From Bacteroidales bacterium (GTDB taxonomy: Bacteria > Bacteroidota > Bacteroidia > Bacteroidales > JAIPAP01), in contig JAIPAP010000017.1 in the NCBI GenBank assembly GCA_021740045.1, positions 1-45,567 on the forward strand: a stretch of DNA of 45,567 nt, in the 5' to 3' direction. Made by a program: the position numbers and the translations under genes. Position 1 is the stretch's first letter, and each line of letters starts with the position of its first letter. The notes under the pieces were generated by a model. It did no database searches and was not told the DNA's origin. It saw only the letters and a program-made list of their open reading frames with translations. Of this stretch, positions 21,898 through 40,784 are shown one piece after another.

Positions 21898-23166
21898 ATG
21901 AAACTTAAAGGCACACCAAGGCAGGGATTAACAGGAACCACCCTCGGTTTCTTCTTCGGATTTGCGGCCGTATCCTTATACGGTCCAACAGCAGTACATT
22001 TCAAGGAAGCATTAAACCTTTCACCGGCATTACTGGGCTTGTTAGTAGCAATACCATCCTTATCGGGCTCTTTGTTGCGAATACCGTTCGGAGCCTGGGT
22101 GGATACCACCGGCGGGAAAAAACCATTCTTTATTCTGATGTTGCTATCAGTGATAGGACTTGGCGGTGTTACCTTATTGCTAAACACTTCTTATCCGGAT
22201 GGTATGGACGGAACATACGGCCTGATATTGTTTTTCGGCTTTTTAAGCGGTTGTGGCATCGCAACTTTTTCTGTGGGTATCGGGCAAACTTCCTATTGGT
22301 TTCCGCAAAAAAAGCAAGGCATGGCCCTGGGAACCTATGCAGGACTGGGAAATCTGGCCCCGGGCTTATTTTCTTTGATCCTGCCGGTTTACCTGGAACA
22401 TTACGGTTTTATTTCGGCCTATTTTGCCTGGTTTTTATTCCTGTTAATAGGAACGGTTATTTTCGGGATTATCGGTTATAATGCCTATTATTTTCAATAT
22501 CGCAAGGCCGGTTATTCCACCAACGAAGCAAAAGAAAAATCAAAGGAAAAGGGTCAGGAGATTTTCCCGTCAGGGGGTGTAAAAGACAGCCTGATGAATT
22601 CGGCAAAGGTAAAAAACACCTGGGCGCTGGTGGTGCTTTATTTTACGACATTCGGTGGCTTTATTGCCTTAACAGCATGGTTTCCCACCTATTGGAGCGA
22701 GTTTCAGGCATTTTCGCCGGTTAAAGCAGGTGCATTTACCGCAATATTTTCTTTGCTGGCTTCGGCCATACGTGTTCCCGGAGGTTCATTCGCCGATAAA
22801 CTTGGCGGTGAAAAAGTGGCCATGCTTTCAATCTCCTTGGTATTAATTGCTGCCATTATTTTATTTTTTACCCATACTATTATTCTGGGAATAACTGCTG
22901 CAGTTCTACTTGCTATAGGTATGGGCGTAAATAATGCAGCAGTGTTTAAGCTGGTGCCCATTTTTGTACCCAAGTCAGTAGGTGGAGCTGCCGGATGGGT
23001 TGGTGGCCTTGGTGCATTTGGCGGTTTCGCCATTCCGCCAATCATGGGCGCCATTGCCGATCTATATGGAAAAGTAGGATACGCAAAAGGATTTATTGTT
23101 TTTGCTATACTGGCCGTGATCGATTTGGCTATTGTGTATGCATTGTTGCAAAAGAGAAAGCGGTAA
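21898..23166 (+). CDS. narK: Nitrate/nitrite transporter, NarK-type MFS
   Basis: A 422-aa major facilitator with twelve predicted helices. The two nitrate-signature regions of the NNP family are recognisable: GIGQTSYWFPQKKQGMALG followed by AGLGNLAPG in the first half, and GMGVNNAAVFKLVPIFVPK followed by VGGLGAFGGF in the second. The expected arginine in helix 2 is present in SLLRIPFGAW. It would import nitrate or exchange nitrate and nitrite for the cytoplasmic reductases encoded downstream. It precedes narG1 by 106 nt and is probably part of the same regulated unit. Confidence 0.93.
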   Translation: MKLKGTPRQGLTGTTLGFFFGFAAVSLYGPTAVHFKEALNLSPALLGLLVAIPSLSGSLLRIPFGAWVDTTGGKKPFFILMLLSVIGLGGVTLLLNTSYPDGMDGTYGLILFFGFLSGCGIATFSVGIGQTSYWFPQKKQGMALGTYAGLGNLAPGLFSLILPVYLEHYGFISAYFAWFLFLLIGTVIFGIIGYNAYYFQYRKAGYSTNEAKEKSKEKGQEIFPSGGVKDSLMNSAKVKNTWALVVLYFTTFGGFIALTAWFPTYWSEFQAFSPVKAGAFTAIFSLLASAIRVPGGSFADKLGGEKVAMLSISLVLIAAIILFFTHTIILGITAAVLLAIGMGVNNAAVFKLVPIFVPKSVGGAAGWVGGLGAFGGFAIPPIMGAIADLYGKVGYAKGFIVFAILAVIDLAIVYALLQKRKR

Positions 23167-23272
23167 ATGATTAACTGAGGTAATAAAGGACATAATTGCA
23201 TTATGACTTGCTTTTATGTATCTTAGGAAATTATTATAAAATCGCTATCTAAATCATAATAAATTACAGGAT

Positions 23273-26200
23273 ATGAGCCTTTTAAACCGATTATTCTATT
23301 TCAGTAAAAATGTCACCAAAACCCGTGATGGTCATGTTGCCACTACCGAAGAAAAGCGCGACTGGGAAAAGTTTTACCGGGACCGATGGCAGCATGATAA
23401 GGTGGTGAGGTCAACACACGGGGTAAATTGTACCGGCTCATGTTCTTGGAAGATCTACGTGAAAAACGGCCTGGTAACCTGGGAAATGCAGCAAACCGAT
23501 TATCCCGAAACCAGGCCGGAACTGCCCAACCATGAACCAAGAGGATGCCCACGTGGTGCAAGCTATTCATGGTATTTATACAGTGCCAACCGGGTAAAGC
23601 ATCCCATGATCAGGGGCTCGCTTGTTAAAGCCTATCGCAATGCCAAAACATCGTTGGAAGATCCGGTGAAGGCTTGGGAAAGCATTATGAATGACCCTGA
23701 GATTTCCAAAGCCTACAAGGCCGATCGCGGCTTGGGTGGTTTCATCAGGATTGACTGGGACGAAGTGAATGAGATCATTACAGCAGCCAATATTTACACC
23801 ATTAAAAAATATGGTCCCGACCGTCTTGCCGGTTTCACTCCCATACCGGCTATGTCGATGGTTTCATATGCTTCTGGTACCCGTTATTTAAGCCTCCTTG
23901 GTGGAACTGTGCTGAGTTTTTATGATTTTTATTGTGATTTACCCCCGGCCTCGCCACAAACTTGGGGTGAGCAAACCGATGTTCCCGAAAGTGCCGATTG
24001 GTATAACTCCTCTTTTCTAATGCTATGGGGTTCAAACGTTCCGCTTACCAGAACTCCTGATGCACCCTTTTATACCCAGGTGCGCTACAAAGGAACCAAA
24101 ACGATCAATATTTCTCCCGATTACAACGATGCCGCCAAATTCGCCGACCTGTGGATGAAGCCAAAACAAGGCACCGATGCTGCGTTGGGGATGGCTATGG
24201 GACACGTGATCCTAAAAGAATTCTACCTGGATAAAAAAACACCCTATTTTGAAGAATATGCCCGGCAATACACTGATTTACCTTTTCTGGTAAAGATAGA
24301 AAAGATGAATGACCGGTTTGTACCTGGCAATGTGGTCCGGGCAAATGATTTCAAGAATGATTTAAATGTTGAGAAAAGCCCGGAATGGAAACCTGTACTT
24401 TTTGATGAAAACTCTGCTGGATTCGCCATACCTAATGGAACCATCGGTTCAAGATGGGACAAAAGCAGTAAATGGAATCTTGAATTGAAAGATGTACGCT
24501 CCGGTAAGGAAATAGCTCCACAACTATCGGTAATTGATGATTATGATGAACTTGCTGAAGTAAGCTTTCCGTATTTTGGCGGAGGCACGTACAAGCATAC
24601 TCATTTCAATGCAACTGATCACGAAGATATTATCACCCGGAAAATTCCGGTAAGAAAAACCAGGGGCCAGGCAAACGATTTTTATTATTGTACGGTATTC
24701 GATCTTTTGGTGGCTAATTATGGGATCCATCGCGGATTGGAGGATGAAAATGCCGCTAAAGCTTATGAAGATGATCTTCCCTATACTCCGGCCTGGCAAG
24801 AAAGGATTACAGGAGTACCGGCAGCGCATATCATCTCTACAGCCCGGCAATTTGCCGATAATGCAGCAAAGACCAACGGCAAGTCGATGATCATTATAGG
24901 GGCGGGGGTAAACCACTGGTTTCATACCGATATGATCTATCGCAGCGCCATCAACATGCTGGTATTATGTGGGTGTGTGGGCAAATCAGGTGGCGGATGG
25001 GCCCACTATGTGGGACAGGAAAAGGTGAGACCACAAACAGGATGGCTACCCCTGGCGTTCGCCTTGGATTGGAACCGGCCTCCCCGGCAAATGAATACCA
25101 CCTCCTATTTTTACATGCATACCGATCAATGGCGATATGAAAAAGTCGGTTTGTCGGAATTGATATCACCGCTTGCCGACAAAAAGAAGTGGGGCAGCCA
25201 ATCGATGATCGATTGCAATGTGAAGGCCGAACGCATGGGTTGGCTGCCCTCTTCGCCGCAACTGAGCGAAAATCCTCTGCACCTTGCCAACGAAGCTGAA
25301 AAAGAAGGCAAGGAACCGGCCGAATTTATCACGGAAAAGCTGAAAAGTGGAGAAATCGCTATCGCAAGCGAAGACCCCGATAATCCAAAAAATTTTCCGC
25401 GTAACCTGTTTGTATGGCGCTCCAATTTGCTGGGATCAAGTTCCAAAGGGATGGAATATTTCATGCGGCACCTTATGGGAGCACAGAATAGTGTTTTAGG
25501 ACCTGATCTGAAAGAGACCGGCCAACCATTGCCTGCCGAGGTTAAATGGCATGATAAGGCCCCGGAAGGCAAGCTCGATTTACTGGTAACCCTTGATTTC
25601 CGCATGTCAACCACGGCCCTTCATTCTGATATTGTGCTGCCGGCTGCATCATGGTATGAAAAAAATGATTTGAGCACATCCGACATGCACCCCTTCATTC
25701 ATCCTTTTGCCAAAGCTGTGGATCCGGTATGGGGCTCCCGAACCGACTGGGAGATTTTTAAAGGACTGGCTAAAAAGTTTTCCGAACTGGTCCCCGGTCA
25801 TCTTGGAACAGAAAAGGATATCGTGCTCTTACCCTTACAGCATGATTCTCCCATGGAAACCTCCGAAACAGCGCTGGCCGAAGATTGGAAGGAGAAAGAC
25901 CTGGAATTGAAACCGGGCAAGAATATGGCTAAGATCATCGGCCTGGAGCGTAATTATCCTGAAACATACAATCGCTTTACTTCTTTGGGACCTATGATGG
26001 ATAAAGCCGGAAATGGCGCCAAGGGCATAAGTTGGAATACCAAAGAGGAAGTAGAGTTTCTTACGAAATTGAATCTTTCATCTAAAAACTCCGGTGAAAG
26101 CAACGGAAGGCCAAGGATAGAAACCGATATTAATGCGGCCGAAGTCATCCTTTCATTAGCCCCGGAAACCAATGGCAATGTAGCACACAAAGCTTGGCGG

Positions 26201-27007
26201 GCACTGGAGAAAAACACAGGCCGAAAACACACCCACCTTGTGGAAGGTCGTACCGAGGAAAAGATCAGATACAAAGACCTGGTCTCCCAACCGCGGAAGA
26301 TCATTACTTCCCCTATTTGGAGCGGCATTGATTCGGAGGAAGTATCCTATAATGCCGGCTATACCAATGTACACGAGCTGATCCCCTGGCGCACCCTCAC
26401 CGGCCGGCAAACCCTTTACCAGGATCATCCCTGGATGCAGGCATTTGGTGAAAACCTGGTGTGTTATAAACCGCCCATTAACACCAAATCGGTACAGCAT
26501 ATTATGGATAAAGCCGATGGAGGTGAAAAATACCTGGTGATCAATGTGATGACCCCTCATAACAAATGGACCATCCATTCATCATGGAGTGATAACTTGC
26601 TAATGCTCACCCTTGGCCGGGGCGGCCCGGTGGTTTGGATGAGCGAAAAAGATGCAGTCAAAATCGATCTCAAGGACAATGACTGGGTGGAGGTTTTCAA
26701 CAGTAACGGGGCTTCTGCCGCACGGCTTATCGTATCGCAACGAATACCCGAAGGTGCTTTGATCATGTATCATAACCAGGAACGAACGGTGAATATGCCG
26801 GTGAACCAGGTGACAGGCAACCGGGGCGGTGTGCATAACTCCATTGAACGCATGAGCCTGAAACCTACCCATATGATAGGGGGTTATGCTCATCTGAGTT
26901 ACGGCTTTAATTATTACGGAACCATTGGTGCGAACCGGGATGAGTTCGCCGTGGTTCGAAAAATGAACAAAGTGGAATGGAAAGACGGGGAGTCCGTGGA
27001 ATCATAA
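23273..27007 (+). CDS. narG: Respiratory nitrate reductase alpha subunit (copy 1)
   Basis: The 1244-aa catalytic subunit holds the Mo-bisMGD cofactor and the FS0 4Fe-4S cluster and reduces nitrate to nitrite on the cytoplasmic side. The FS0 ligands are H49, C53, C57 ([12 protein letters not shown]) and C92 (EPRGCPRG). The Mo ligand is D222 in YCDLPPASPQTWGEQTDVPE. Both the numbering and the flanking sequence match E. coli NarG very closely. There is no twin-arginine signal, consistent with a cytoplasmic enzyme. The C-terminal molybdopterin-dinucleotide-binding domain ends near 1230 (HLSYGFNYYG...NRDEFAVVRKM). It heads narGHJI, with narH 13 nt after it. Confidence 0.98.
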   Translation: MSLLNRLFYFSKNVTKTRDGHVATTEEKRDWEKFYRDRWQHDKVVRSTHGVNCTGSCSWKIYVKNGLVTWEMQQTDYPETRPELPNHEPRGCPRGASYSWYLYSANRVKHPMIRGSLVKAYRNAKTSLEDPVKAWESIMNDPEISKAYKADRGLGGFIRIDWDEVNEIITAANIYTIKKYGPDRLAGFTPIPAMSMVSYASGTRYLSLLGGTVLSFYDFYCDLPPASPQTWGEQTDVPESADWYNSSFLMLWGSNVPLTRTPDAPFYTQVRYKGTKTINISPDYNDAAKFADLWMKPKQGTDAALGMAMGHVILKEFYLDKKTPYFEEYARQYTDLPFLVKIEKMNDRFVPGNVVRANDFKNDLNVEKSPEWKPVLFDENSAGFAIPNGTIGSRWDKSSKWNLELKDVRSGKEIAPQLSVIDDYDELAEVSFPYFGGGTYKHTHFNATDHEDIITRKIPVRKTRGQANDFYYCTVFDLLVANYGIHRGLEDENAAKAYEDDLPYTPAWQERITGVPAAHIISTARQFADNAAKTNGKSMIIIGAGVNHWFHTDMIYRSAINMLVLCGCVGKSGGGWAHYVGQEKVRPQTGWLPLAFALDWNRPPRQMNTTSYFYMHTDQWRYEKVGLSELISPLADKKKWGSQSMIDCNVKAERMGWLPSSPQLSENPLHLANEAEKEGKEPAEFITEKLKSGEIAIASEDPDNPKNFPRNLFVWRSNLLGSSSKGMEYFMRHLMGAQNSVLGPDLKETGQPLPAEVKWHDKAPEGKLDLLVTLDFRMSTTALHSDIVLPAASWYEKNDLSTSDMHPFIHPFAKAVDPVWGSRTDWEIFKGLAKKFSELVPGHLGTEKDIVLLPLQHDSPMETSETALAEDWKEKDLELKPGKNMAKIIGLERNYPETYNRFTSLGPMMDKAGNGAKGISWNTKEEVEFLTKLNLSSKNSGESNGRPRIETDINAAEVILSLAPETNGNVAHKAWRALEKNTGRKHTHLVEGRTEEKIRYKDLVSQPRKIITSPIWSGIDSEEVSYNAGYTNVHELIPWRTLTGRQTLYQDHPWMQAFGENLVCYKPPINTKSVQHIMDKADGGEKYLVINVMTPHNKWTIHSSWSDNLLMLTLGRGGPVVWMSEKDAVKIDLKDNDWVEVFNSNGASAARLIVSQRIPEGALIMYHNQERTVNMPVNQVTGNRGGVHNSIERMSLKPTHMIGGYAHLSYGFNYYGTIGANRDEFAVVRKMNKVEWKDGESVES

Positions 27008-27020
27008 AAATATAAGCATC

Positions 27021-28505
27021 ATGCAGATACGTGCACAAATAGGAATGGTGTTGAATCTCGATAAATGCATTGGTTGCCACACTTGTTCGGTAACCTGCAA
27101 AAACGTGTGGACTTCACGCAAAGGGATGGAATATGCCTGGTTCAACAATGTGGAGACTAAGCCGGGTCTCGGCTATCCGGTCGACTGGGAGAACCAGGAA
27201 CACTGGAAAGGAGGCTGGGAGATCAGGAAAAATGACCTGCACCCCAAAATGGGCAATAAAAAAGGCATTGTGAAAAATATCTTTAATAATCCTTACATGC
27301 CCCGAATAGATGATTATTACGAGCCTTTTACCTTCAATTATTCCATTCTGCATAAAAGCTCGAAGTTCAAAACCCCGCCATCGGCAAGGCCTTATTCCAT
27401 GATCACGGGTAAGAAGATGGAAAAGATCGAATATGGTCCTAACTGGGAAGACAACCTGGGTGGAACTTATGAATCGCGGAGCCGGGAAAAGAATTTCGAC
27501 GAAATACAAAAAGAGATCTACGGGGAGTTTGAAAATTCCTTTATGATGTATTTGCCGCGCCTATGCGAGCATTGCATCAATCCTACTTGCCTGGCGGCCT
27601 GCCCTTCGGGGGCTATTTACAAAAGGGAAGAAGACGGCATTGTACTGATCGATCAGGATCGTTGCCGGGGATGGCGGCAATGTGTAAGCGCCTGTCCGTA
27701 TAAAAAGATCTATTTTAACTGGCAAACCAAGAAATCGGAGAAATGCACCTTGTGTTATCCCAAAATTGAGGCCGGCGAACCAACGCTTTGTTCCGAATCA
27801 TGCGTGGGCAGGTTAAGGTACATCGGGGTAATGTTGTATGATGCCGAAAAGATAAAGGCCGCCGCATCCAAAGAAAATGAACAGGAGCTTTACCAGGCTC
27901 ATCTCGATGTTTTTCTCGATCCCCATGATCCCGATGTTATAAGGGAGGCCCGTGAACAGGGCATACCCGATAATTTTCTGGATGCGGCTAAAAATTCACC
28001 GGTTTACAAAATGGCCATGGACTGGAGGGTGGCTTTCCCCCTGCATCCTGAATACCGCACCCTGCCGATGGTTTGGTATGTGCCTCCGCTATCCCCCATT
28101 CAATCGGCTGCCGATAGTGGCAAGATTGGGCATAACGGCATAATACCCGATGTGGATTCCATGCGCATTCCGGTAAAATACCTGGCCAATATGTTTACGG
28201 CCGGTGATGAAGAACCCGTTAAAAATGCATTGAAAAAAATGCTGGCCATGCGGGCATACATGCGTACCAAAACCGTGGAAAATGAAGTCAATGAAGAAGC
28301 ACTTAAGGATATCGACCTCACCGCTGGCCAGGTGGAGGAAATGTATCGCTACATGGCGATCGCCGATTATAAAGACCGCTTTGTCATTCCAACTTCTCAC
28401 AAGGAATACGCAGAGGATGCCTTTGGCGATAAATCGGCTTGTGGGTTTACGGACGATGAAGGCTGTGGTACCGGAAAATTCAAAAATTTATTTGGAGGAT
28501 TATGA
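27021..28505 (+). CDS. narH: Respiratory nitrate reductase beta subunit (copy 1)
   Basis: The 494-aa iron-sulfur subunit transfers electrons from the NarI hemes to NarG. The first cysteine group is C16-x2-C19-x2-C22-x3-C26 (CIGCHTCSVTCKN). The later groups are CEHCINPTCLAACP, CRGWRQCVSACP and CTLCYPKIEAG...CSESC. The tryptophan in CRGWRQC replaces a cysteine, as expected for the 3Fe-4S cluster of NarH. MQIRAQIGMVLNLDKCIGC at the start fits the family exactly. narJ follows after 120 nt containing two hairpins. A rather acidic, cysteine-containing tail (CGFTDDEGCGTG) ends the protein. Confidence 0.97.
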   Translation: MQIRAQIGMVLNLDKCIGCHTCSVTCKNVWTSRKGMEYAWFNNVETKPGLGYPVDWENQEHWKGGWEIRKNDLHPKMGNKKGIVKNIFNNPYMPRIDDYYEPFTFNYSILHKSSKFKTPPSARPYSMITGKKMEKIEYGPNWEDNLGGTYESRSREKNFDEIQKEIYGEFENSFMMYLPRLCEHCINPTCLAACPSGAIYKREEDGIVLIDQDRCRGWRQCVSACPYKKIYFNWQTKKSEKCTLCYPKIEAGEPTLCSESCVGRLRYIGVMLYDAEKIKAAASKENEQELYQAHLDVFLDPHDPDVIREAREQGIPDNFLDAAKNSPVYKMAMDWRVAFPLHPEYRTLPMVWYVPPLSPIQSAADSGKIGHNGIIPDVDSMRIPVKYLANMFTAGDEEPVKNALKKMLAMRAYMRTKTVENEVNEEALKDIDLTAGQVEEMYRYMAIADYKDRFVIPTSHKEYAEDAFGDKSACGFTDDEGCGTGKFKNLFGGL

Positions 28506-28516
28506 TGAAACGAAGC

Positions 28517-28564
28517 ATGACTAAATAATTATTAAGACACAAACGACAATGATTATTTAGTCAT
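28517..28564. repeat. 13-bp inverted repeat between narH and narJ
   Basis: ATGACTAAATAAT at 28517-28529 and its exact complement at 28552-28564 enclose a 22-nt loop, starting 11 nt after the narH stop. No T-tract follows, so it is more likely an mRNA stability or attenuation hairpin than a terminator. Confidence 0.6.
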
Positions 28565-28573
28565 ACGTAGTTC

Positions 28574-28593
28574 CCTGTCTGCCAACAGGCAGG
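28574..28593. repeat. GC-rich REP-like palindrome (CCTGTCTG / CAGGCAGG)
   Basis: An 8-pair stem with a CCAA loop lies between narH and narJ. Its minus-strand translation reads CLPVGRQG, the hallmark peptide of a short palindrome widely dispersed in Bacteroidota and sometimes miscalled as protein. It is probably a dispersed repeat that inserted in the operon. Confidence 0.6.
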
Positions 28594-28625
28594 CATCCGA
28601 CCATTAAAAAATAAAAAATAAACGG

Positions 28626-29249
28626 ATGAAAACTTACAAAATACTGTCGCTCTTGCTTTCCTATCCTTCTGAAGAAATACAGGATTTTTTGGGAGAAGTG
28701 GACAGTGAACTCAAAAATGAAAACCTGCTCCCCCCTGATGCGATAGAAGGAATAAAGCAATTTACGGATCATTTTGCCAATGAGGATATCACCGACTGGC
28801 AAGCACACTATGTGCAGTTGTTCGATTATTCAAGGGCGGCTTCATTGCATCTTTTTGAACATGTTAAAGGCGATTCCAAAGACCGGGGTCAGGCTATGGT
28901 TGACCTGATCAACTTTTACCGCGAAAATGGAATGGAATTAGCTACCAATGAGTTGCCGGATCATCTGCCTGTATTTCTTGAATTTTTGTCAACACAGGAA
29001 CCGGAGAAAGCGGCCAAACTTCTTTCGGAGCCGGTTAATGTAATTGCCCGGATTTTTGAAAAACTGCATGAAAAGGAAAACCAGTATCAACATATCCTTG
29101 CGGCTATCCTGGAGCTATCGGAGCGAAAGCCTGAGCAATCAACCGTTGAAAAGATCATCAATAGTCAAAAACCAATGGATTTGGACGAGGAGTATGAAGA
29201 AAAGCCGGTGACATTCGGTGGAAATAACGATTGTACCGGTTGTTATTAA
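28626..29249 (+). CDS. narJ: Nitrate reductase assembly chaperone (copy 1)
   Basis: The 207-aa cytoplasmic chaperone helps insert the molybdenum cofactor and assemble NarGH before membrane attachment. The TorD/NarJ-type all-helical fold is indicated by YKILSLLLSYPSEEI at the start, AHYVQLFDYSRAASLHLFEHVKGDSKDRGQAM (about 60-90) and ELPDHLPVFLEFLS (about 118-131). The C-terminus ends in DCTGCY, a cysteine pair that the second copy lacks. Position between narH and narI is canonical. Confidence 0.95.
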   Translation: MKTYKILSLLLSYPSEEIQDFLGEVDSELKNENLLPPDAIEGIKQFTDHFANEDITDWQAHYVQLFDYSRAASLHLFEHVKGDSKDRGQAMVDLINFYRENGMELATNELPDHLPVFLEFLSTQEPEKAAKLLSEPVNVIARIFEKLHEKENQYQHILAAILELSERKPEQSTVEKIINSQKPMDLDEEYEEKPVTFGGNNDCTGCY

Positions 29250-29261
29250 AAATAATGAACT

Positions 29262-29951
29262 ATGGAACATTATATTAACAATCTGCTGTTTACTTATTTC
29301 CCGCATATTGCCATGGCGGTGTTTTGGTTTGGGTTGATCACCCGCTTGGTGAAAACCAATAAAACCGTACAGGCTCAATCCACTCAATTTTTAGCCGACC
29401 GTAAAATCCGCATTGGGAGCAATTTATTTCATGTGGGCATCATCATGGTATTTTTCGGGCATTTTACGGGACTGTTCACACCCGAAACGGTATACCATAT
29501 GGTAATCTCCACCGAAACCAAACGCATAATTGCCATCACACTTGGAAGTGTTTTCGGCACCATGACCTTTGTGGGTATGATCATCCTGATCACCCGCCGT
29601 TTAAAGGATGACCGGATACGAATCAACAGCACTTTTCAAGACTATTTCCTGCTTTTTTTGTTGTTAATCGAAGTAGGATTGGGATTGGCATCAATATCAA
29701 CTACAGCTACTGCATCGGTTGAGCATTATGCTTCGCTGGGTGTATGGGCGCAAAAGGTCATCACTTTTCAACCCGATGCAGGTGCAGTGATAGCCGGGCA
29801 TAATCTTATTTATAAGCTGCACATTGTAGTTGGGTTGTTCATTTTTATTATTTTTCCATACACCAAACTAATGCACATGTTGACTATCCCGATAGCTTAT
29901 TTTTTCAGGTCGGGATATCAACTTGTAAGAAAAGGGTTGCATTGGAAATAA
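29262..29951 (+). CDS. narI: Respiratory nitrate reductase gamma subunit, cytochrome b (copy 1)
   Basis: The 229-aa membrane subunit oxidises quinol and carries two b hemes. Five helices can be placed at about 5-25, 48-68, 86-106, 125-145 and 178-200. The heme-ligand histidines occur as the expected pairs: FHVGIIMVFFGH in helix 2, and H of AGHNLIYKLH and of KLMH in the last. It starts 12 nt after narJ and is followed 9 nt later by a dihydroorotate-dehydrogenase-like gene. Confidence 0.96.
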   Translation: MEHYINNLLFTYFPHIAMAVFWFGLITRLVKTNKTVQAQSTQFLADRKIRIGSNLFHVGIIMVFFGHFTGLFTPETVYHMVISTETKRIIAITLGSVFGTMTFVGMIILITRRLKDDRIRINSTFQDYFLLFLLLIEVGLGLASISTTATASVEHYASLGVWAQKVITFQPDAGAVIAGHNLIYKLHIVVGLFIFIIFPYTKLMHMLTIPIAYFFRSGYQLVRKGLHWK

Positions 29952-29960
29952 TTAAAATTA

Positions 29961-30926
29961 ATGCTTATGTTGGAAACAAATTACCTTGGTATAAAACTTA
30001 AAAATCCGATCATTATCGGTAGTAGCGGATTAACCGGAAAAGAAAGTTCTATTCTCGAACTTGAAAAACACGGTGCCGGCGCTATCGTGTTGAAATCATT
30101 ATTTGAAGAAGACATTTACACCGATTTTACGCGCGAGGCCGGAAAAGGCAAGCGTTCGGATGAGGAACTCGATTACCTGGATGTAAAGGTTAAGCAACAA
30201 CATCTTGCAGAATATACGGACTTGATCAGGAGTGTAAAATCAAAACTTGAGATACCGGTCATGGCTAGCATTAATTGCACGACCAGCCATGAATGGGGCT
30301 ATTTTGCCGGTGAGATCAATAGAGCCGGCGCCGATGCCCTGGAGTTGAATATATATGAAGTCCCGGAAATAAAGCAATCCGGTAAGGATATTGAACAACG
30401 GCATTTTGAGATCATTCGTAATGTTTTACGAAAGATAAATATCCCGCTGACGGTTAAAATTAGTCCTTATCATAGTTCACCGGGTTATTTTTGCTCTGAA
30501 CTTAAAAAGATGGGTGTATCCGGTGTAACCCTGTTCAATCGCTTTTTAGGGCCCAATTTTAATCCCCAAACCTTTGAATTTGAAAAAAACAATCTGTACA
30601 GCTCCCCGGATGAATATTTCAATACCCTGAGATGGATCGGTATTCTTGATGAAAAAATCAAGATTCACCTTTGTGCCTCCACCGGAATACATGACAGCAC
30701 AACCATAATGAAAATGCTGGCAGCAGGAGCTTCGGCGGTACAGCTTGTGAGTGTGGTCTACAAACATGGACCTGAGATCATTTCCAGGATGGAAGCAGAG
30801 ATAAAAGAATTCTTGAAATCAGCAGGTTTCGAATCAATTAAAGCTTATCGAAAAGAAGCTGATAAGCAGTTGAAGCGGGAAAACTTCACGCGGTCGCAGT
30901 TCCTGCGATTAAAAAAGTTTACTTAG
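29961..30926 (+). CDS. Dihydroorotate dehydrogenase-like flavoprotein in the nar operon
   Basis: The 321-aa TIM-barrel protein is of the class 1 dihydroorotate dehydrogenase-like family, expected to bind FMN. The start (LETNYLGIKLKNPIIIGSSG) is typical, and SINCTTSHEWGYFA, ADALELNIYEVP, PLTVKISPYHS and GASAVQLVSVVYKHG mark the barrel. It differs from genuine PyrD: I cannot place the normal catalytic loop with confidence, and no pyrimidine genes are near. The start could also be the ATG at 29967. It begins 9 nt after narI, so it is very likely co-transcribed with narGHJI. The substrate is unknown; a redox role linked to nitrate respiration is only inference. Confidence 0.85.
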   Translation: MLMLETNYLGIKLKNPIIIGSSGLTGKESSILELEKHGAGAIVLKSLFEEDIYTDFTREAGKGKRSDEELDYLDVKVKQQHLAEYTDLIRSVKSKLEIPVMASINCTTSHEWGYFAGEINRAGADALELNIYEVPEIKQSGKDIEQRHFEIIRNVLRKINIPLTVKISPYHSSPGYFCSELKKMGVSGVTLFNRFLGPNFNPQTFEFEKNNLYSSPDEYFNTLRWIGILDEKIKIHLCASTGIHDSTTIMKMLAAGASAVQLVSVVYKHGPEIISRMEAEIKEFLKSAGFESIKAYRKEADKQLKRENFTRSQFLRLKKFT

Positions 30927-31081
30927 CTGTGTTGTTTCATTTCTATCGTTTTATTCGTTAACATTTCATTAACAAAATATTTTATCCATAAATGTCTAAA
31001 AAACAATTGGATGATAATTTTATTCGCTTTATTATATAAAATCGTACATAATTACTTGCATTTACTGCCTTTCCAAATTAA

Positions 31082-31173
31082 CTTTGCTATAAATAATTAG
31101 ATATGAGCTATTTAAGTATTGTTAATGCATAATTAACCCAATAAGATATCTAACACTATGTGCTATAGCAAAG
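31082..31173. promoter_or_regulatory. 92-bp imperfect palindrome upstream of the cytochrome/narG2 unit
   Basis: Four nested inverted-repeat segments share one centre: CTTTGCTATA (31082-31091) with TATAGCAAAG (31164-31173), TTAGATAT with ATATCTAA, TATT with AATA, and GTTAAT-GCATA-ATTAAC in the middle. The palindrome ends 22 nt before the cytochrome ATG, so it lies in the promoter/leader region. It could be stacked operator sites, a leader hairpin or a small mobile palindrome. Confidence 0.6.
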
Positions 31174-31195
31174 GCAGAAACGAAAAAACAAGCCC

Positions 31196-32050
31196 ATGAA
31201 AATCATCATCTTGAAAATATCAGTTTTAATCCTGATCTGTCTGCCCATCAGTGACGGATTAACACAAACATCAGGTAAACAAGTTTTTCGCAACAAGGGC
31301 TGTGCAGGTTGCCATACTATTAACGAAGGAAAATTAATCGGACCCGACCTTGCCAACATCACTGAAAAGCGGAATCGTAAGTGGTTGATCAATTTCATAC
31401 GCTCACCCAAAAAGATGATCGACAATGGCGATACTCTTGCCGTAAGATTATACAATAAATACAACAAAGTGATGATGCCCGCTAATGATATGACCGATGA
31501 AGAAATAAAAAACCTGCTGGATTTTATAGCCCAAAAAAGCTCCGAAAAGACTAATCAACAAAACACTAAACAGAAATCAACGGCAACAGCATATAATGCC
31601 AATAACTTTTCAACCGGTAAACAGCTGTTTACAGGAGAATTACTTTTTATGAACTATGGCCCTTCCTGCATATCCTGTCATGATATTAAAAATATGTCGT
31701 CTTTACATGGCGGAATGCTCGCCAAAGATCTTTCAACAACCTATAAACGCTTGGGCGATAGGGGCATTAGAGCTTTGCTTAAGAATCCTGCATTTCCGGT
31801 GATGAAGGAAGCTTACCGCAACAAACCGCTCACAAAAGCGGAAATCCATAATCTCACGGCTTTTCTGAAAAAGGCGGCACAGAAAAAACCCGGAAAACAA
31901 ACTGCCGGAGTGAAATTCGAAAGCCAATTTATTATCGTCGGCCTGTTGGGAGCCGGTATTTTCATCCTCGTTATTTCATTGATCTGGCTGAGAAGGAAGA
32001 AGCATAGTGTGAATGATGAAATATACGAACGTCAGCTTAGAACTGAATAA
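31196..32050 (+). CDS. Membrane-anchored diheme cytochrome c (NarC-like position)
   Basis: The 284-aa product has a signal peptide (hydrophobic residues 3-17), two c-type heme sites (CAGCH at about 39-43 and CISCH at about 158-162) with candidate distal methionines in VMMPANDM and FPVMKEA, and a C-terminal membrane helix (about 243-265) followed by a basic tail RRKK. It would thus be a periplasmic diheme cytochrome held by its tail. It lies 20 nt before narG2 and so heads the second cluster, as narC heads the Thermus nar operon. It may pass electrons between the bc-type pool or periplasmic donors and the second reductase. The alternative is an unrelated diheme protein of the same operon. Confidence 0.85.
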   Translation: MKIIILKISVLILICLPISDGLTQTSGKQVFRNKGCAGCHTINEGKLIGPDLANITEKRNRKWLINFIRSPKKMIDNGDTLAVRLYNKYNKVMMPANDMTDEEIKNLLDFIAQKSSEKTNQQNTKQKSTATAYNANNFSTGKQLFTGELLFMNYGPSCISCHDIKNMSSLHGGMLAKDLSTTYKRLGDRGIRALLKNPAFPVMKEAYRNKPLTKAEIHNLTAFLKKAAQKKPGKQTAGVKFESQFIIVGLLGAGIFILVISLIWLRRKKHSVNDEIYERQLRTE

Positions 32051-32070
32051 ATAACTGAAAATAAGCACAT

Positions 32071-35000
32071 ATGAGTTGGATACAAGACCTTATATCTCCG
32101 AATACCCGCAAATGGGAACAATTTTACCGCAATCGTTTTCAGCATGACCGTGTATACAGGAGCACTCATGGGGTCAATTGTACCGGTGGATGTTCCTGGC
32201 AAATACATGTAAAAGACGGTATTGTGGTGTGGGAAACCCAGCAACTGGACTACCCATTGCTGGATGATAAGCTACCGCCGTATGAACCGCGCGGTTGCCA
32301 GCGCGGGATATCATTCTCGTGGTACCTTTACAGCCCCTTACGAATCAAGTATCCACTCATCCGTGGGAAATTATTGGATGCCTATCGTGAAATAAGAGAA
32401 AAGTCCAATGACCCGGTGGAAGCCTGGAAAAAACTTCAGGAAGATGCACCCAAACGAAGCGAATATCAAAAAGCACGCGGTAAAGGCGGTTTCCGACGGG
32501 CAAGCTGGGAGGAACTGCTCGAGATCATTGCTGCCTCCAACATCTATACGGCCCAGAAGCATGGCCCCGACCGGGTTATCGGGTTTTCTCCCATTCCGGC
32601 CATGTCGATGCTCAGCTATGCCGGTGGAAGCCGTTTTCTGCAACTTTTCGGAGGGGTGAACCTTAGTTTTTACGATTGGTACTGCGACTTGCCAAACGCC
32701 TCACCCGAAATCTGGGGCGAACAAACCGATGTGGCCGAAAGTGCCGATTGGTACAACTCCAAATTCATTGCTGTAATGGGTGCAAACCTGAACATGACCC
32801 GTACACCCGATACGCACTTTTTTGCCGAGGCCCGATACAACGGAACTAAAACCGTGGTATTTTCCCCCGACTTCAGCCAGGTGGCCAAATATTCTGACCA
32901 ATGGGTTCCCATTCATGCCGGCAGCGATGGCGCCTTCTGGATGGGCGTAACACATGTCATCTTGCAGGAATTTCATCATAAAAAGCAGGTGCCCTATTTC
33001 CTTAATTATGCAAAGCAATATACCGACAGCCCTTATCTTGTTGAACTATCGGAAGACGATAGCCGGTATAAACCTGGAAAATTGCTACGGGCAAACCGCA
33101 TTGAGCAATACAAAGATATAGAGAACGGCGATTGGAAATTCCTTAACATCAATGAGTCCACCGGCAAGCTGGTTGTTCCCAATGGAAATATCGGGCACCG
33201 CTGGGATAGCGAAGAAGGCAACTGGAATTTGAAATTGAAGGATAACACCGGGAATGAGCCTATTGACCCCTTACTTAGCTTAATTGATCATGCCGATGAA
33301 ATTCTTCAGGTTGAATTCAGGGACTTTGGCCTGGATAATCGCTATGAAAGAGGAGTCCCCGTTCAGTGGATCAAAACCGTTGATGGTGAAAAGGTACCGG
33401 TTACCACTGTTTATGACCTTACGATGGCTCAGTACGGCGTTAGCCGGGGCTTGGATGGTCATTATCCTGATTCGGACGATTATCATAACAAAGACATGGC
33501 TTTTACACCGGCCTGGCAGGAGATCTTCTCAGGCACCGATGCCAATACCGTAATTCAATTTGCGCGTGAATGGGCTAAAACGGCCGAGGCTACCAACGGA
33601 AAATGCTCCATCATCATAGGAGCAGGAGTAAATCATTGGTATCAGAATAACCTGATGTACCGGGCAGGAATAATGACCCTGATGTTATGTGGATGTGTTG
33701 GTGTGAACGGTGGTGGGCTGAATCATTACGTGGGTCAGGAAAAACTGGCTCCAATCGATTCATGGGGAACCATCGCCTTTGCCAAGGACTGGGTGGATGC
33801 AGCGCGTTTGCAGCAAGCTCCCATTTGGCATTACATCAATACTTCCCAGTATCGCTATGACGGTTTTTCATCGGAATACAACATTGCCCCGGAAAATGAA
33901 TATACCAACATGCATAATGCCGATCTTATCCTTAAATCCATAAGAATGGGATGGATGCCATACTATCCGCAATTCAATAAAAATCCTTTGGATTTATGTA
34001 AGGAAGCCTTGGAAAACGGAGCCTCTACCGATGATGAGATCAAGGATTACATTTTACAAAAACTTAAATCGGGTGAATTGGGTTATTCTGCCGCCGATCC
34101 TGAAGCGGAAGAGAATTTTCCCCGTGTTTGGTACATCTGGAGGGGTAATGCCATTTCGGGTAGCATGAAAGGCCATGAATATCTGCTTAAGCATTACCTG
34201 GGAACACATTCAAATGTTATAGCTACCGAAAGGGAAGAACAAAAAACCGAAGAAGTTAAATGGCATGAAGTGGCGCCGGAGGGTAAGATGGACCTGGTGG
34301 TGGATTTGAATTTCCGTATGGATTCCTCGGCCCTGTATTCCGATATTGTACTACCGGCGGCATCATGGTATGAAAAGGATGACCTGAACAGCACTGATTT
34401 ACACTCCTTCATTCATCCCTTAACCGCTGCTGTGGCCCCTGTATGGGAATCAAAGACCGATTGGGATATTTTTAAACAGATTGCCCGTAAGACAAGTGAA
34501 CTGGCAAAACAACATTTTTCCAGCCCTGTTAAAGATGTTGTCACAGCGCCACTGGCGCATGATACGCCGGATGAAATTACTCAACCGGAAGTGAAAGACT
34601 GGGCTCACGGCGAATGTGAAGCCATACCCGGAAAAACCATGCATAAGCTCAAGATCGTGGAACGGGATTATACCCGGCTATATGAAAAGTTTATAAGCCT
34701 TGGCGATAAAGTAAGAAGTAAAGGCCTTGGAGCGCATGGTAATGCTTATGCCTGTGAAGATGTATATGATGAAATAAGCCAATCAGCACATTTTGCCCGC
34801 GAGAAACTGGATAACAAAATGTATCCCTCACTAAAGGAAGCGGAATCGGCCGCCAATGTCATCATGCAATTATCAACACTGACCAATGGTAAGTTAACTT
34901 CGAGGGCATATAAAAATGCCGAAAAGAAAACCGGCCTCAAGCTAACCGACATTTCCGAAGGGAATGAGCATACCAGGGTGAGCTTTTCCAATTTAAAAGC

Positions 35001-35697
35001 ACAGCCTCACCGATACAATAGTTCACCCATATGGTCGGGCCTGATGAATGCAGGACGAGCCTATGCGGCTTTTACTTATAATGTGGAACGTCTTGTGCCG
35101 TGGCGTACATTAACCGGCCGCCAGCATTTATACCTCGACCATCCCATGTACATCGCTTATGGTGAAAACCTGCCTACCTATAAGCCTTCTCCAAAATGGG
35201 AGCTGTACGGCGATTTGCGTGAAACCCTTAAAAACGGGGAGGCCAAGGTGTTGAACTGTTTAACACCACATGGCAAATGGCATATCCATTCCACGTATAT
35301 GGATAACATTCGTATGCTCACTTTATCCCGCGGTATTGAACCTTGCTGGCTCAGCGAAGCCGATGCCGAAGAGCTCGGTATCAAAGATAATGATTGGGTG
35401 GAGGTACACAACGATCACGGTGTGTTTAGCACGCGTGCCGTAGTGAGTAACCGCATTCCAAAAGGAGTTTGCATTGTTTATCACGCCTCGGAAAGGACTA
35501 TTAGTGTTCCTAAATCACAAGTGCGTAACGGTAAACGAGCCGGTGGCAATAATAGCTTTACCCGGGTGCACCTCAAGCCTAATTTGCTTGCAGGTGGTTA
35601 CGGGCAGTTTTCATATCACTTTAACTACTGGGGCCCTACCGCACCTAATCGTGATACGCATGTGATTGTAAAGAAAATGACCAAGGTTGAATTTTAA
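32071..35697 (+). CDS. narG: Nitrate reductase alpha subunit, diverged copy 2
   Basis: The 1208-aa molybdopterin enzyme is related to NarG1 throughout but strongly diverged, mostly in the middle (about 330-480 and 600-720). The FS0 ligands H33, C37, C41 ([12 protein letters not shown]) and C76 (EPRGCQRG) and the Mo ligand D206 ([20 protein letters not shown]) are all kept, so it should be active. GGC for GSC and NASPEI for PASPQT are shared-site changes near the cofactors. No twin-arginine signal is present. The substrate is probably nitrate; other oxyanions such as chlorate, or the reverse reaction, cannot be excluded from sequence alone. It is preceded by the diheme cytochrome and overlapped or closely followed by narH2. 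Confidence 0.95.
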
Positions 35698-35707
35698 GAT
35701 AGATGCT

Positions 35708-37231
<1,524 letters not shown>

Positions 37232-37291
37232 TAGGACTTTGAAACAAAGTATGAAACAATTAATATGAGATCAATCAAAACCGCTGAAACT

Positions 37292-37945
37292 ATGGCTATC
37301 AACTTAAAACACTATACCTTATTTGCCGGGGCGCTCGAATATCCTGATAAGGATTATAGGAAGGAAGTGCATGAACTTGCGCAACTGCTAACTTCCGATT
37401 TTGCGGAAGCCGCTAAGGAGTTTGCGCATTTTAGCCGGGTCATATCCCATGCTGATCTCAGGCAACTCGAGGAACTGTATACCCGAACATTTGACGTACA
37501 GGCCCTGACAACGCTTGATATTGGTTACCTGTTATTTGGCGAGGATTATAAACGGGGTAAGTTCCTGGTAAACCTGAACAATGAAATGCGCGAAGCCGGG
37601 ATTGATTGCAAGGGGCAACTATCGGATTATCTGCCTAATGTGTTACGGTTGATCAATCGCATGGAGAAAGAAAATTTGCGCGATGAACTAGTGGTAATGA
37701 TCATGATTCCCTCAATAAACAAGATCCTTAACGATTTCACACCCGAACGGATAAAGATGAAGCAAAAGATCTACAAAAAGCATCAAAAAACACTGCTTGA
37801 AAATCCTACTGACTACCCCCTTATTTACTACTTTTTGTTTTCTACCTTAAAAAGGGTCTTAATAGAAGATTTTAATAGTGAAGCGAAAAAGGCGGTTGAA
37901 CATGAATATGAAAAAGATATTAATCAGGAACTGAAAAATGGTTAA
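37292..37945 (+). CDS. narJ: Nitrate reductase assembly chaperone, copy 2
   Basis: The product is 217 aa from the ATG at 37292 (MAINLKHYTLFAGALEYPD), which fits NarJ better than the 226-aa form from 37265. NarJ-type features are LEELYTRTFDVQALTTLDIGYLLFGEDYKRG (about 60-90) and QLSDYLPNVLRLINRM. It is less similar to NarJ1 than the structural subunits are to theirs, and lacks its C-terminal cysteine pair. It is located canonically between narH2 and narI2 and presumably serves NarG2 specifically. Confidence 0.88.
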   Translation: MAINLKHYTLFAGALEYPDKDYRKEVHELAQLLTSDFAEAAKEFAHFSRVISHADLRQLEELYTRTFDVQALTTLDIGYLLFGEDYKRGKFLVNLNNEMREAGIDCKGQLSDYLPNVLRLINRMEKENLRDELVVMIMIPSINKILNDFTPERIKMKQKIYKKHQKTLLENPTDYPLIYYFLFSTLKRVLIEDFNSEAKKAVEHEYEKDINQELKNG

Positions 37946-37948
37946 GCT

Positions 37949-38638
37949 ATGAACTTTTTGAACACATTTCTATTTATTGTCCTGCCCTACATTTCGCTGG
38001 CGGTATTTTTGACCGGTACCCTTTACCGGTACAAGAATGCAAAATACAGTTATACATCATTATCGTCGCAATTCCTGGAGAATAAAAAGCTTTTCTGGGG
38101 ATCGCAGGCTTTTCACTGGGGGATTGTTTTTCTGTTTTTCGGTCATTTGGTGGGCTTTCTGTTCCCAAAAACGGTTATTGCCTTCAATAATCAACCGGTG
38201 CGAATAATGATAATTGAAGGCGCCGCCTTTATTGCGGGATTACTCACCTTATTCGGGATCCTTGTGTTGATTATACGCAGATTAACCGATGCCCGGCTAC
38301 GTAAAGTGACCACGAAAATGGACTGGACTATTGAGGGCATTCTGTTGCTTGAAATTGTCCTTGGTATTTTCATCGCCCTCTCATACCGGTGGGGCTCCAG
38401 TTGGTTTGCCTCCGTATTATCGCCCTATTTGAAATCGATCTTTACCTTGAATCCCCAAATACAAGCTATAAATGCCGCTCCCTTGATGTTGAAACTCCAT
38501 ATTGCGGGTTTTTTTCTTCTGCTTATTTTAATTCCTTTTTCAAGGCTGGGGCACTTGTTGCTTTATCCCATACGGTATGCCTGGAGGCCCTATCAGCGAG
38601 TGATTTGGTACAGTAATCGCAAAAAAATTTTGAAATAA
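37949..38638 (+). CDS. narI: Nitrate reductase gamma subunit, cytochrome b, copy 2
   Basis: The 229-aa membrane protein has five predicted helices. The heme histidines are kept: FHWGIVFLFFGH in helix 2, and the pair KLH and LGH in the last helix (LMLKLHIAGFFLL...FSRLGH). In the fourth loop it differs from copy 1 (WGSSWFASVLSPYLKSIF). It starts 3 nt after narJ2. Because both clusters have their own NarI, each enzyme can be supplied by quinol, and the cytochrome c of cluster 2 is additional. Confidence 0.94.
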   Translation: MNFLNTFLFIVLPYISLAVFLTGTLYRYKNAKYSYTSLSSQFLENKKLFWGSQAFHWGIVFLFFGHLVGFLFPKTVIAFNNQPVRIMIIEGAAFIAGLLTLFGILVLIIRRLTDARLRKVTTKMDWTIEGILLLEIVLGIFIALSYRWGSSWFASVLSPYLKSIFTLNPQIQAINAAPLMLKLHIAGFFLLLILIPFSRLGHLLLYPIRYAWRPYQRVIWYSNRKKILK

Positions 38639-39995: not shown

Positions 39996-40098
39996 GTGAC
40001 TGCATTTGCCAAGGTGTTATTTTATAATCCGGGACATTTTATTGCCAAAAAATAAGTCCCACTTTAGCAGGTAGGTCGCACACATGATATCCCAAGGC

Positions 40099-40106
40099 TA
40101 ATTTTG
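40099..40106 (+). promoter_or_regulatory. Putative -7 box (TAATTTTG) of the DUF6448-like gene
   Basis: TAATTTTG matches TAnnTTTG 43 nt before the ATG at 40149. A GGGAC/GTCCC hairpin without T-tract (40031-40060) lies upstream. No clear -33 box is visible. Confidence 0.35.
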
Positions 40107-40148
40107 TTTCAAATTCAAGTCGAATATAAACGTTAAAAGATCGAAACT

Positions 40149-40784
40149 ATGAAAAAGTCAGAAGCAAAGCTCGCAGAAAAGAGCAGGAAGAAAACAACTA
40201 TTATGAAAATGGCCGGTAGCCTGGTAATGGTGTTGATGTTTATCGCATTCACCTCACAGCAAACGTATGCCCATTGCGACCGGAAAAACGGTCCCGTTGC
40301 CGTTGATGCAAAAGAAGCCCTGAGAACCGGGAATTTTAGCAAAGTTGCCATATGGATCGGCGAAGAGCAGGAAGAAGAGCTGAGGGATAAATTCCGGCAA
40401 AGTTTGAGTGTTTACCAAAAAGGTGGTGATTCAAAAGAGCTTGCAACGGAATATTTTATGAGTAACACGGTTAGGTTGCACCGTGCAGCGGAAGGCATGC
40501 CTTTCACCGGCCTGAAACCGGCACAAGCTGCAGCAAAAGACATTCAGGTTGCAGAAAAAGCGCTGAAAACAGGTAATCTTGACCCTGTGATGGATATGTT
40601 TTCAAGCAAAATGGAGGATGAAGCCCAAAAATGGTTTCAAAAAGCGCTGGAAGCCAAAAAGAATAAGGATGAAAGCGTAGAAGCAGGACGTGAATGGGCC
40701 GACAAGTACGTGAAATACATCATTTATCTTCACAAACTTTATCAAAAGATAGAAGCCGGTCCACCCCATGGCGTGGGAGAATAG
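40149..40784 (+). CDS. Exported DUF6448-like protein
   Basis: The 211-aa product (193 aa if started at the ATG at 40203) carries a signal peptide: KMAGSLVMVLMFIAFTSQQTYA, with cleavage likely before HCDRKNGPV. The mature part begins with AHCD..GPV and has two repeats of the type A.K.AL.TGN....IW/MF, features I recall for DUF6448. The body is helical with conserved histidines (RLHRAAEG, YLHKLYQ). No catalytic site is known to me. It is a single gene with a good terminator. Confidence 0.75.
   Translation: MKKSEAKLAEKSRKKTTIMKMAGSLVMVLMFIAFTSQQTYAHCDRKNGPVAVDAKEALRTGNFSKVAIWIGEEQEEELRDKFRQSLSVYQKGGDSKELATEYFMSNTVRLHRAAEGMPFTGLKPAQAAAKDIQVAEKALKTGNLDPVMDMFSSKMEDEAQKWFQKALEAKKNKDESVEAGREWADKYVKYIIYLHKLYQKIEAGPPHGVGE

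What the first reader, a model, noticed from the sequence alone, without database searches (positions are those of the whole stretch)
21898..38638. Two complete, diverged narGHJI clusters in tandem with different accessory genes
Cluster 1 (narK-narGHJI plus a flavoprotein gene) has an enterobacterial-like NarG. Cluster 2 (cytochrome c-narGHJI) has a strongly diverged NarG that still keeps all visible FS0 and molybdenum ligands (H33, C37, C41, C76, D206). Each cluster has its own chaperone and cytochrome b, and the differences are not those of a fresh duplication. This points to two specialised enzymes, for example high versus low nitrate or redox level, or a different oxyanion or direction for the second.
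Basis: partly seen in the sequence, partly recalled or inferred. Interest (0 to 1): 0.6.

Follow-up and report, generated by a model that had tools for sequence, protein, structure and literature searches.

The report
Two unrelated nitrate reductases, side by side
A Bacteroidales bacterium carries two complete nitrate-respiration enzymes next to each other, one of the kind known from E. coli and one of the kind known from Thermus with an extra cytochrome; both kinds are known, but their pairing in one locus is uncommon and arose more than once.

Summary
Cluster 1 is narK-narGHJI (21898-29951); cluster 2 is cytochrome c-narGHJI (31196-38638). They are not duplicates. All four Nar subunits of cluster 1 are nearer to E. 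coli (NarG 61%); all four of cluster 2 are nearer to Thermus thermophilus (NarG 60%, against 46% to E. coli). In a 62-row tree NarG2 joins Thermus and other Bacteroidota, and NarG1 the proteobacterial side. The cytochrome matches Thermus NarC; such an ORF lies upstream of narG in 43 of 43 Thermus-type loci and 0 of 46 E. coli-type loci. Cluster 2 is thus a narCGHJI operon, the usual Nar of the phylum sample: 24 of 395 genomes. Seven of 26 genomes chosen for type 1 carry both, including the isolate Gaoshiqia sediminis, in tandem. The pairing arose at least twice (AU p 4.9e-6). The flavoprotein gene is not a conserved nar gene. Most likely both enzymes reduce nitrate, cluster 2 with an added periplasmic outlet for electrons. 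Another oxyanion or nitrite oxidation has no direct support here but is not excluded. New pairing of two known kinds; modest interest.

The parts
21898..23166 (+). narK: nitrate/nitrite MFS transporter of cluster 1
   Evidence: TIGR00886 174 bits, below its cut-off of 311.7; precedes narG1 in most type-1 loci of Bacteroidota with upstream sequence, not in all
23273..27007 (+). narG1: catalytic subunit, E. coli type
   Evidence: TIGR01580 2004.6 bits; 61% to E. coli NarG, 49% to Thermus; on the proteobacterial side of the tree
27021..28505 (+). narH1: iron-sulfur subunit
   Evidence: TIGR01660 893.5 bits; 67% to E. coli, 47% to Thermus
28626..29249 (+). narJ1: chaperone
   Evidence: TIGR00684 112.6 bits; 35% to E. 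coli, 24% to Thermus
29262..29951 (+). narI1: diheme cytochrome b
   Evidence: TIGR00351 191.1 bits; four heme histidines align with E. coli
29961..30926 (+). dihydroorotate-dehydrogenase-like flavoprotein; a neighbour, probably not part of the nar system
   Evidence: NF005741 330.8 bits; no homologue in the nar loci of other genomes; 28-42% homologues elsewhere, on contigs other than the nar ones, in 14 of 14 genomes
31196..32050 (+). narC (named here): membrane-anchored diheme cytochrome c of cluster 2
   Evidence: PF00034 67.6 bits; 30% over 201 aa to the Thermus cytochrome beside narG, E 1.5e-26; two CxxCH, a Met invariant in the alignment (FPxM stretch), a C-terminal hydrophobic segment by eye
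32071..35697 (+). narG2: catalytic subunit, Thermus type
   Evidence: TIGR01580 1497.1 bits; 60% to Thermus, 46% to E. coli; clade with Thermus, support 100; ligands H33 C37 C41 C76 D206
35708..37231 (+). narH2: iron-sulfur subunit
   Evidence: TIGR01660 663.4 bits; 59% to Thermus, 52% to E. coli
37265..37945 (+). narJ2: chaperone
   Evidence: TIGR00684 56.0 bits, cut-off 59.35; 34% to the Thermus chaperone, E 1e-20
37949..38638 (+). narI2: diheme cytochrome b
   Evidence: TIGR00351 144.2 bits; 42% to Thermus, 34% to E. coli; four heme histidines kept
38865..40784 (+). AraC-type regulator and DUF6448 protein; neighbours also found within about 6 kb of type-1 nar clusters in five other loci
   Evidence: L041, L047, L048, L058, L064, with varied strand and order

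Best explanation
Two respiratory nitrate reductases of different ancestry stand side by side. Cluster 1 encodes a standard NarGHI with its transporter: quinol is oxidised at NarI, and nitrate is reduced at NarG on the cytoplasmic side. Cluster 2 encodes a four-subunit NarCGHI of the Thermus type: the same quinol-to-nitrate path, plus a membrane-anchored periplasmic diheme cytochrome NarC next to NarI. By analogy with Thermus, NarC is needed for assembly and membrane attachment and can pass electrons to c-type acceptors when nitrate is scarce. Cluster 2 was most likely gained from another Bacteroidota lineage beside a resident cluster 1. In this host the nitrite probably goes to ammonium through NrfA. 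Shown: gene content, ancestry, ligands, NarC homology, recurrence of the pairing. Inferred: activity, direction, role of NarC, order of arrival, expression.
For: All four Nar subunits sort coherently: cluster 1 to E. coli, cluster 2 to Thermus. The tree puts NarG2 with Thermus (100*) and NarG1 on the proteobacterial side (100*). A c-type cytochrome ORF lies upstream of narG in 43 of 43 type-2 loci (41 with two CxxCH, 2 with one), and in 0 of 46 type-1, 0 of 14 named proteobacterial, 0 of 29 best-scoring sampled Pseudomonadota and 0 of 21 actinobacterial loci; loci with short upstream sequence were set aside: 2 type-2, 5 type-1, 7 actinobacterial. Ligands are kept. The same tandem occurs in Tobar18m-G3 (L041, cluster 2 cut by the contig end) and in the isolate Gaoshiqia sediminis, so it is no assembly artefact. 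AU tests reject one clade for the NarG2 of six dual genomes (p 4.9e-6) and reject the window's NarG2 with the other Bacteroidales (p 0.001). AraC-DUF6448 lies near type-1 clusters in L047, L048, L058 and L064, after cluster 2 in the window and between the clusters in L041, which fits a later arrival of cluster 2. NrfA is present in the own genome. NarC role in Thermus: PMC7694296 (passages).
Against: No expression or activity data. NarC is only 30% identical to its Thermus counterpart and evolves fast (49% to L041, where NarG2 is 89%). The own genome has no hit to NirK or NosZ, so the nitrite-reductase partner that NarC serves in Thermus was not found; NirS gave no hit, but its control was silent too. 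Window NarG2 has Gln 525 where 20 of 22 type-2 rows have His; only Tobar18m-G1 shares it, and its effect is unknown. The AU groups were named after the tree had been seen. The order of arrival rests on few loci, and with losses the number of pairings is a minimum.
Confidence: 0.74

Rival explanations
1. Cluster 2 works mainly in reverse, as a cytoplasmic nitrite oxidoreductase: nitrite is oxidised at NarG2 and electrons leave through NarI2 and NarC to cytochrome c and the oxidase.
For: PMC7694296 (passages) notes a very similar gene cluster in Nitrobacter, where the enzyme oxidises nitrite and electrons leave through the NarC homologue. All 36 type-2-only genomes given to the search have a heme-copper oxidase by my 250-bit line, against 8 of 19 type-1-only genomes.
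Against: The nearest characterised relative found is the Thermus nitrate reductase (60%). No gene stands between narG2 and narH2 (10-base gap), where I recall nxrX in Nitrobacter. The host has NrfA, which consumes nitrite. Nitrobacter NxrA itself could not be fetched, so its place in the tree was not tested.
Confidence: 0.06
2. The two enzymes do the same job and one is a redundant, recently gained copy on its way out.
For: Only 7 of 26 type-1 genomes carry both, and their NarG2 proteins are not a clade, so the pair comes and goes.
Against: narK, both narGHJI sets and narC are open and metal ligands are kept; the pairing recurs in separate branches, on one contig in 4 of the 7 dual genomes.
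Confidence: 0.15
3. Cluster 2 acts on another oxyanion (chlorate, selenate) in vivo.
For: Seventeen positions separate the two clades.
Against: Thermus follows the type-2 letter at 15 of these 17 and the window at 16, so they mark the clade and not the window's enzyme. NarG2 scores 1228 bits against the E. [quoted passage not shown] By eye its N-terminus has no Tat-type signal.
Confidence: 0.03
4. The tandem is an assembly or binning artefact.
For: The genome is a 161-contig draft with 2.77% estimated contamination.
Against: The window is one continuous contig, and the same tandem is found in Tobar18m-G3 and in the isolate Gaoshiqia sediminis.
Confidence: 0.01

Closest known systems
Thermus thermophilus narCGHJI(KT) nitrate reductase (L152; PMC7694296)
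   Same: Gene order cytochrome c-G-H-J-I; 60% (G), 59% (H), 42% (I), 34% (J) and 30% (C) identity; diheme NarC with C-terminal anchor
   Different: Window cluster 2 has no transporter after narI2; the host also holds an E. coli-type Nar; the Thermus regulators (dnrST, drpAB) and nrcDEFN were not searched for
E. coli narK-narGHJI (Nar A, L151) and narUZYWV (Nar Z, L153)
   Same: Cluster 1 has the same order and 61% NarG identity
   Different: The two E. coli enzymes are sisters in the tree (99*); the window's two are not. No narX homologue was searched for; a LytS-like histidine kinase, so judged by eye, lies at 15326-17482, and whether it serves the nar genes is unknown
Two Nar systems of Methylophaga nitratireducenticrescens JAM1 (PMC4689864, abstract)
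   Same: Two Nar enzymes in one genome with unequal roles
   Different: Their ancestry and gene content were not looked up here
Nar loci of Prolixibacter denitrificans (L063) and Gaoshiqia sediminis (L049, L192, L193)
   Same: Type-1 clusters 78% and 81% identical in NarG; Gaoshiqia also has type 2 on the same strand, its narC starting about 4.6 kb after narI1
   Different: Gaoshiqia NarG2 belongs to a different type-2 branch from the window's; Prolixibacter showed one NarG only

Membership tests
Respiratory nitrate reductase NarGHI (both clusters) | NarG, NarH, NarI above curated model cut-offs | tested here: met
Respiratory nitrate reductase NarGHI (both clusters) | FS0 ligands His-Cys-Cys-Cys and the Asp molybdenum ligand | tested here: met
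   in all 63 aligned rows, the two window proteins included
Respiratory nitrate reductase NarGHI (cluster 1) | Dedicated NarJ chaperone | tested here: met
   NarJ1 112.6 bits, cut-off 59.35
Respiratory nitrate reductase NarGHI (cluster 2) | Dedicated NarJ chaperone | tested here: inconclusive
   NarJ2 56.0 bits against 59.35, no Pfam match, but 34% to the Thermus chaperone, E 1e-20, and in the right place
Respiratory nitrate reductase NarGHI (both clusters) | Quinol-dependent nitrate reduction | not testable with these tools
   needs enzyme assay
Thermus-type NarCGHI (cluster 2) | c-type cytochrome gene directly upstream of narG | tested here: met
Thermus-type NarCGHI (cluster 2) | Cytochrome with two hemes and a membrane anchor, homologous to NarC | tested here: met
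   E 1.5e-26; anchor by eye
Thermus-type NarCGHI (cluster 2) | NarG in one clade with Thermus NarG | tested here: met
   support 100; one Thermus row only
Thermus-type NarCGHI (cluster 2) | NarC required for maturation and attachment; electron bridge | not testable with these tools
   reported for Thermus in PMC7694296 (passages)
Thermus-type NarCGHI (cluster 2) | Linked regulators dnrST and drpAB | not tested
   not searched for
Cytoplasmic nitrite oxidoreductase (Nitrobacter type) | NarG2 groups with NxrA | not tested
   no NxrA of this type could be fetched; in a 398-genome Pseudomonadota sample no full-length hit exceeded 50% identity to NarG2 (one partial piece 54%)
Cytoplasmic nitrite oxidoreductase (Nitrobacter type) | nxrX between the alpha and beta genes (recalled) | tested here: not met
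   narG2 and narH2 are 10 bases apart
Periplasmic nitrite oxidoreductase / type II DMSO reductase | Closest to periplasmic NxrA or other type II enzymes | tested here: not met
   113 bits (NxrA, 7b04) and 451 bits (5e7o) against 1228 for E. coli NarG

The most novel reading that the evidence does not exclude
Cluster 2 is a switchable junction rather than a second copy of the same pump: NarC lets it move electrons between the quinol pool, nitrate and periplasmic c-type cytochromes, as a stand-in for complex III or even as a nitrite oxidase in oxygen. Bacteria that already own a plain NarGHI pick it up repeatedly and place it next door for that purpose.
Probability: 0.2. Interest if true: 0.65.

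Novelty: new member of a known kind. Interest (0 to 1): 0.36.

Why it matters
[quoted passage not shown] Here narC-type operons are the usual Nar of sampled Bacteroidota, which I take to be mostly mesophiles. The word narCGHJI occurs in 7 papers of the library (listing only), each with Thermus in its title or abstract; the one paper holding NarC, NarG, Bacteroidota and nitrate reductase as words uses narC for an assimilatory gene (PMC11443553, passages). In the listings I saw no title on two Nar types in Bacteroidota; those papers were not read, apart from the abstract of PMC4689864. Dual-type strains, above all the isolate Gaoshiqia sediminis, would let one ask in a single cell what the fourth subunit adds to a nitrate reductase. 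If the pairing is a real division of labour, counts of narG in metagenomes mix two different enzymes.

Tried and rejected
Fresh duplication: rejected by 45.5% identity and by the tree. Flavoprotein as a nar accessory: rejected, since no homologue stood in the nar loci of other genomes, while homologues of 28-42% identity occur on other contigs in 14 of 14 genomes. NrfA did not separate the types: 12 of 19 type-1-only, 23 of 36 type-2-only, 5 of 7 dual genomes. Denitrification partners as the reason for type 2: weak. NosZ rang in 11 of 36 type-2-only, 1 of 19 type-1-only and 1 of 7 dual genomes (13 of 62). NirK rang in 4, 2 and 3 of these (9 of 62; one of the type-1 hits is below the cut-off). 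Neither rang in the own genome; Gaoshiqia and two other dual genomes do have NirK, which leaves the electron-bridge idea open for them. NirS rang nowhere, nor in its controls, so that result is empty. Shared regulatory site: nothing clear. Upstream of narK (31 loci) and narC (32 loci) the commonest gapped palindromes stood in 2 and 5 loci (one shuffle: 2 and 3); the promoter word TTG-N17-23-TANNTTTG stood in 0 of 31 and 3 of 32 (shuffles 0.5 and 0.8), one of the three being the window's at 31056. Foreign composition: GC3 of the nar genes is 0.43-0.53 and of the other genes measured 0.35-0.49, so there is no clear break. mis-sorted loci by type and is replaced. Structure prediction was not used: at 46-61% identity to a solved enzyme I judged that it would add little.

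Rows left out: of the type-2-only genomes, G075, G309 and G462 were not given to (36 of 39 were). The type-1 set there came from 25 of the 80 named loci plus the own genome, chosen by me for named Bacteroidota with good context. The truncated NarG2 of Tobar18m-G3 was left out of the trees. The 250-bit line that separates oxidases from NorZ-like proteins was set after seeing the scores, and the completeness of genomes reached through named loci is not told. Of the seven dual genomes 4 have such an oxidase and 3 (draft genomes) do not. In one search at most two candidates per genome were scored.
Full report
What is there. The window is one whole contig of a 3.9 Mb, 161-contig genome. On the plus strand lie narK, narG1, narH1, narJ1, narI1, a dihydroorotate-dehydrogenase-like gene, a cytochrome c gene, narG2, narH2, narJ2 and narI2, all open. 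Curated models recognise every Nar subunit above cut-off except NarJ2, slightly under; NarK is also under its own model's cut-off. The host is very probably a Bacteroidales bacterium: a genome that the tool calls 'same order' (G013) has the same contig coordinates and size as the named genome Tobar18m-G1. That is an inference.

Two ancestries. Pairwise identities sort all four subunits the same way. Cluster 1: NarG 61% to E. coli and 49% to Thermus; NarH 67/47; NarJ 35/24; NarI 36/29. Cluster 2: NarG 46% to E. coli and 60% to Thermus; NarH 52/59; NarJ 24/34; NarI 34/42. Among 174 plasmid records with a match to NarG2, 60 of them listed, the listed Thermus records are the best (59-60%) and the next best full-length match listed is 48%; two partial matches, over 35% and 20% of the query, reach 54% and 62%. 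In a 62-row tree (quick IQ-TREE, SH-aLRT only), Thermus and 20 Bacteroidota type-2 proteins form one clade, and a 25-row type-1 clade (Bacteroidota plus Mesosutterella and Dakarella) is sister to a mainly proteobacterial group. In 398 Pseudomonadota genomes 68 held a match, and no full-length one was more than 50% identical to NarG2.

The cytochrome is NarC. It is 30% identical to the Thermus cytochrome encoded in front of narG (E 1.5e-26), with two CxxCH motifs, a methionine invariant in the alignment (FPxM stretch) and a C-terminal hydrophobic segment. A c-type cytochrome ORF lies within 1.5 kb upstream of narG in 43 of 43 type-2 loci with enough upstream sequence (41 with two CxxCH), and in 0 of 46 type-1 (nearly all Bacteroidota), 0 of 14 named proteobacterial, 0 of 29 best-scoring sampled Pseudomonadota and 0 of 21 actinobacterial loci. 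In Thermus the protein is required for a mature, membrane-bound enzyme and is thought to bridge electrons to nitrite and nitric oxide reductases (PMC7694296, passages seen). Cluster 2 is therefore a narCGHJI operon by anatomy and descent; that it works in the same way is inference.

Which copy is the odd one. NarG2-type proteins occur in 24 of 395 sampled genomes of the phylum (56-77% identity apart from the own copy), and only the own genome also showed the E. coli type. Within the order, 30 of 393 genomes have a NarG. By score, and for three incomplete ones, 14 have type 1 and 19 have type 2, three of them both. In the named scan, which kept the best 80 of 128, the matches of 64% and more are Bacteroidota by title (one is called a Sphingobacteriia bacterium).

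The pairing recurs. Of 26 genomes chosen because they hold type 1, seven hold both: the own genome, two bins named Tobar18m, Gaoshiqia sediminis, and three further metagenome bins (G788, G790, G805). They share a contig in four (G000, G782, G787, G788). In Tobar18m-G3 and Gaoshiqia they stand on one strand, type 1 first, as in the window; in G788 they converge; in G790, G805 and Tobar18m-G1 they are on different contigs. The NarG2 proteins of six dual genomes are not one clade (AU p 4.9e-6). The window's NarG2, with that of Tobar18m-G1, sits among proteins from genomes labelled 'same phylum' only, rather than with the other Bacteroidales (AU p 0.001); both groups were named after the first tree was seen. 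Together this means at least two separate pairings and, for the window, a likely transfer of cluster 2 from another Bacteroidota lineage. AraC and DUF6448 genes lie within about 6 kb of type-1 clusters in L047, L048, L058 and L064, on varied strands; in the window they follow cluster 2, and in L041 they precede it. That fits cluster 2 arriving beside an existing type-1 locus.

Active site and quinol side. The FS0 and molybdenum ligands are the same in all 63 aligned rows. Seventeen positions separate the clades; Thermus follows the type-2 letter at 15 and the window at 16. No position invariant in the other 62 rows is changed in either window protein. Window NarG2 has Gln 525 in a His-Trp-Tyr-His stretch, shared only with Tobar18m-G1 among 22 type-2 rows; its meaning is unknown. 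Both NarI proteins keep the four heme histidines. At E. coli NarI Lys86, which I recall as a quinol-site residue, NarI1 has Lys while NarI2 and Thermus have Arg (read off). None of this points clearly to a new substrate.

Host context. The own genome has NrfA, one protein that looks like an aa3-type oxidase and one NorZ-like protein by score and length, and no hit to NirK or NosZ. All 36 type-2-only genomes given to one search have an oxidase scoring above 250 bits, against 8 of 19 type-1-only and 4 of 7 dual genomes (36 against 19: Fisher 6e-7; within the order 15 of 15 against 8 of 19, p 4.7e-4). Lineages are not independent and the score line was set afterwards, so this is only a hint that NarC-type reductases live in cells with a cytochrome oxidase chain.

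Verdict. No evidence supports another oxyanion; the reverse direction rests on analogy alone and could not be tested against Nitrobacter. The two-Nar situation has precedent in E. coli and Methylophaga.

Noticed in passing
18210-18794: A small regulator that joins an N-terminal heavy-metal-binding domain (CopZ-like, weak match 26.6 bits) to an AraC-type DNA-binding domain, directly before a copper P-type ATPase (18944-21178) and a short ORF that looks CopZ-like by eye (21267-21506): a possible one-piece copper sensor.
   Followed up: no
L076 and L085 (Mesosutterella porci, Dakarella massiliensis): Their NarG proteins nest inside the Bacteroidales type-1 clade (support 100) although the hosts are Burkholderiales (recalled), suggesting transfer between phyla.
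   Followed up: no
L047 and L048 (Prolixibacteraceae isolate STCSWMC_58): One genome with two close type-1 nar clusters: possibly a recent duplication, unlike the window.
   Followed up: no
L088 (Lutibacter sp. isolate clean449): A type-1 cluster 77% identical to the window's in NarG, in a genome named Lutibacter; transfer or mis-binning.
   Followed up: no
40149-40784: DUF6448 protein with an AraC regulator, found near several type-1 nar clusters (L041, L047, L048, L058, L064); its role in nitrate respiration is unknown.
   Followed up: partly
L041 15398-15943 and L192 16763-17801: ORFs that look hemerythrin-like by eye (no family search) sit next to the nar clusters of Tobar18m-G3 and Gaoshiqia; in the window the dihydroorotate-dehydrogenase-like gene stands there instead.
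   Followed up: no
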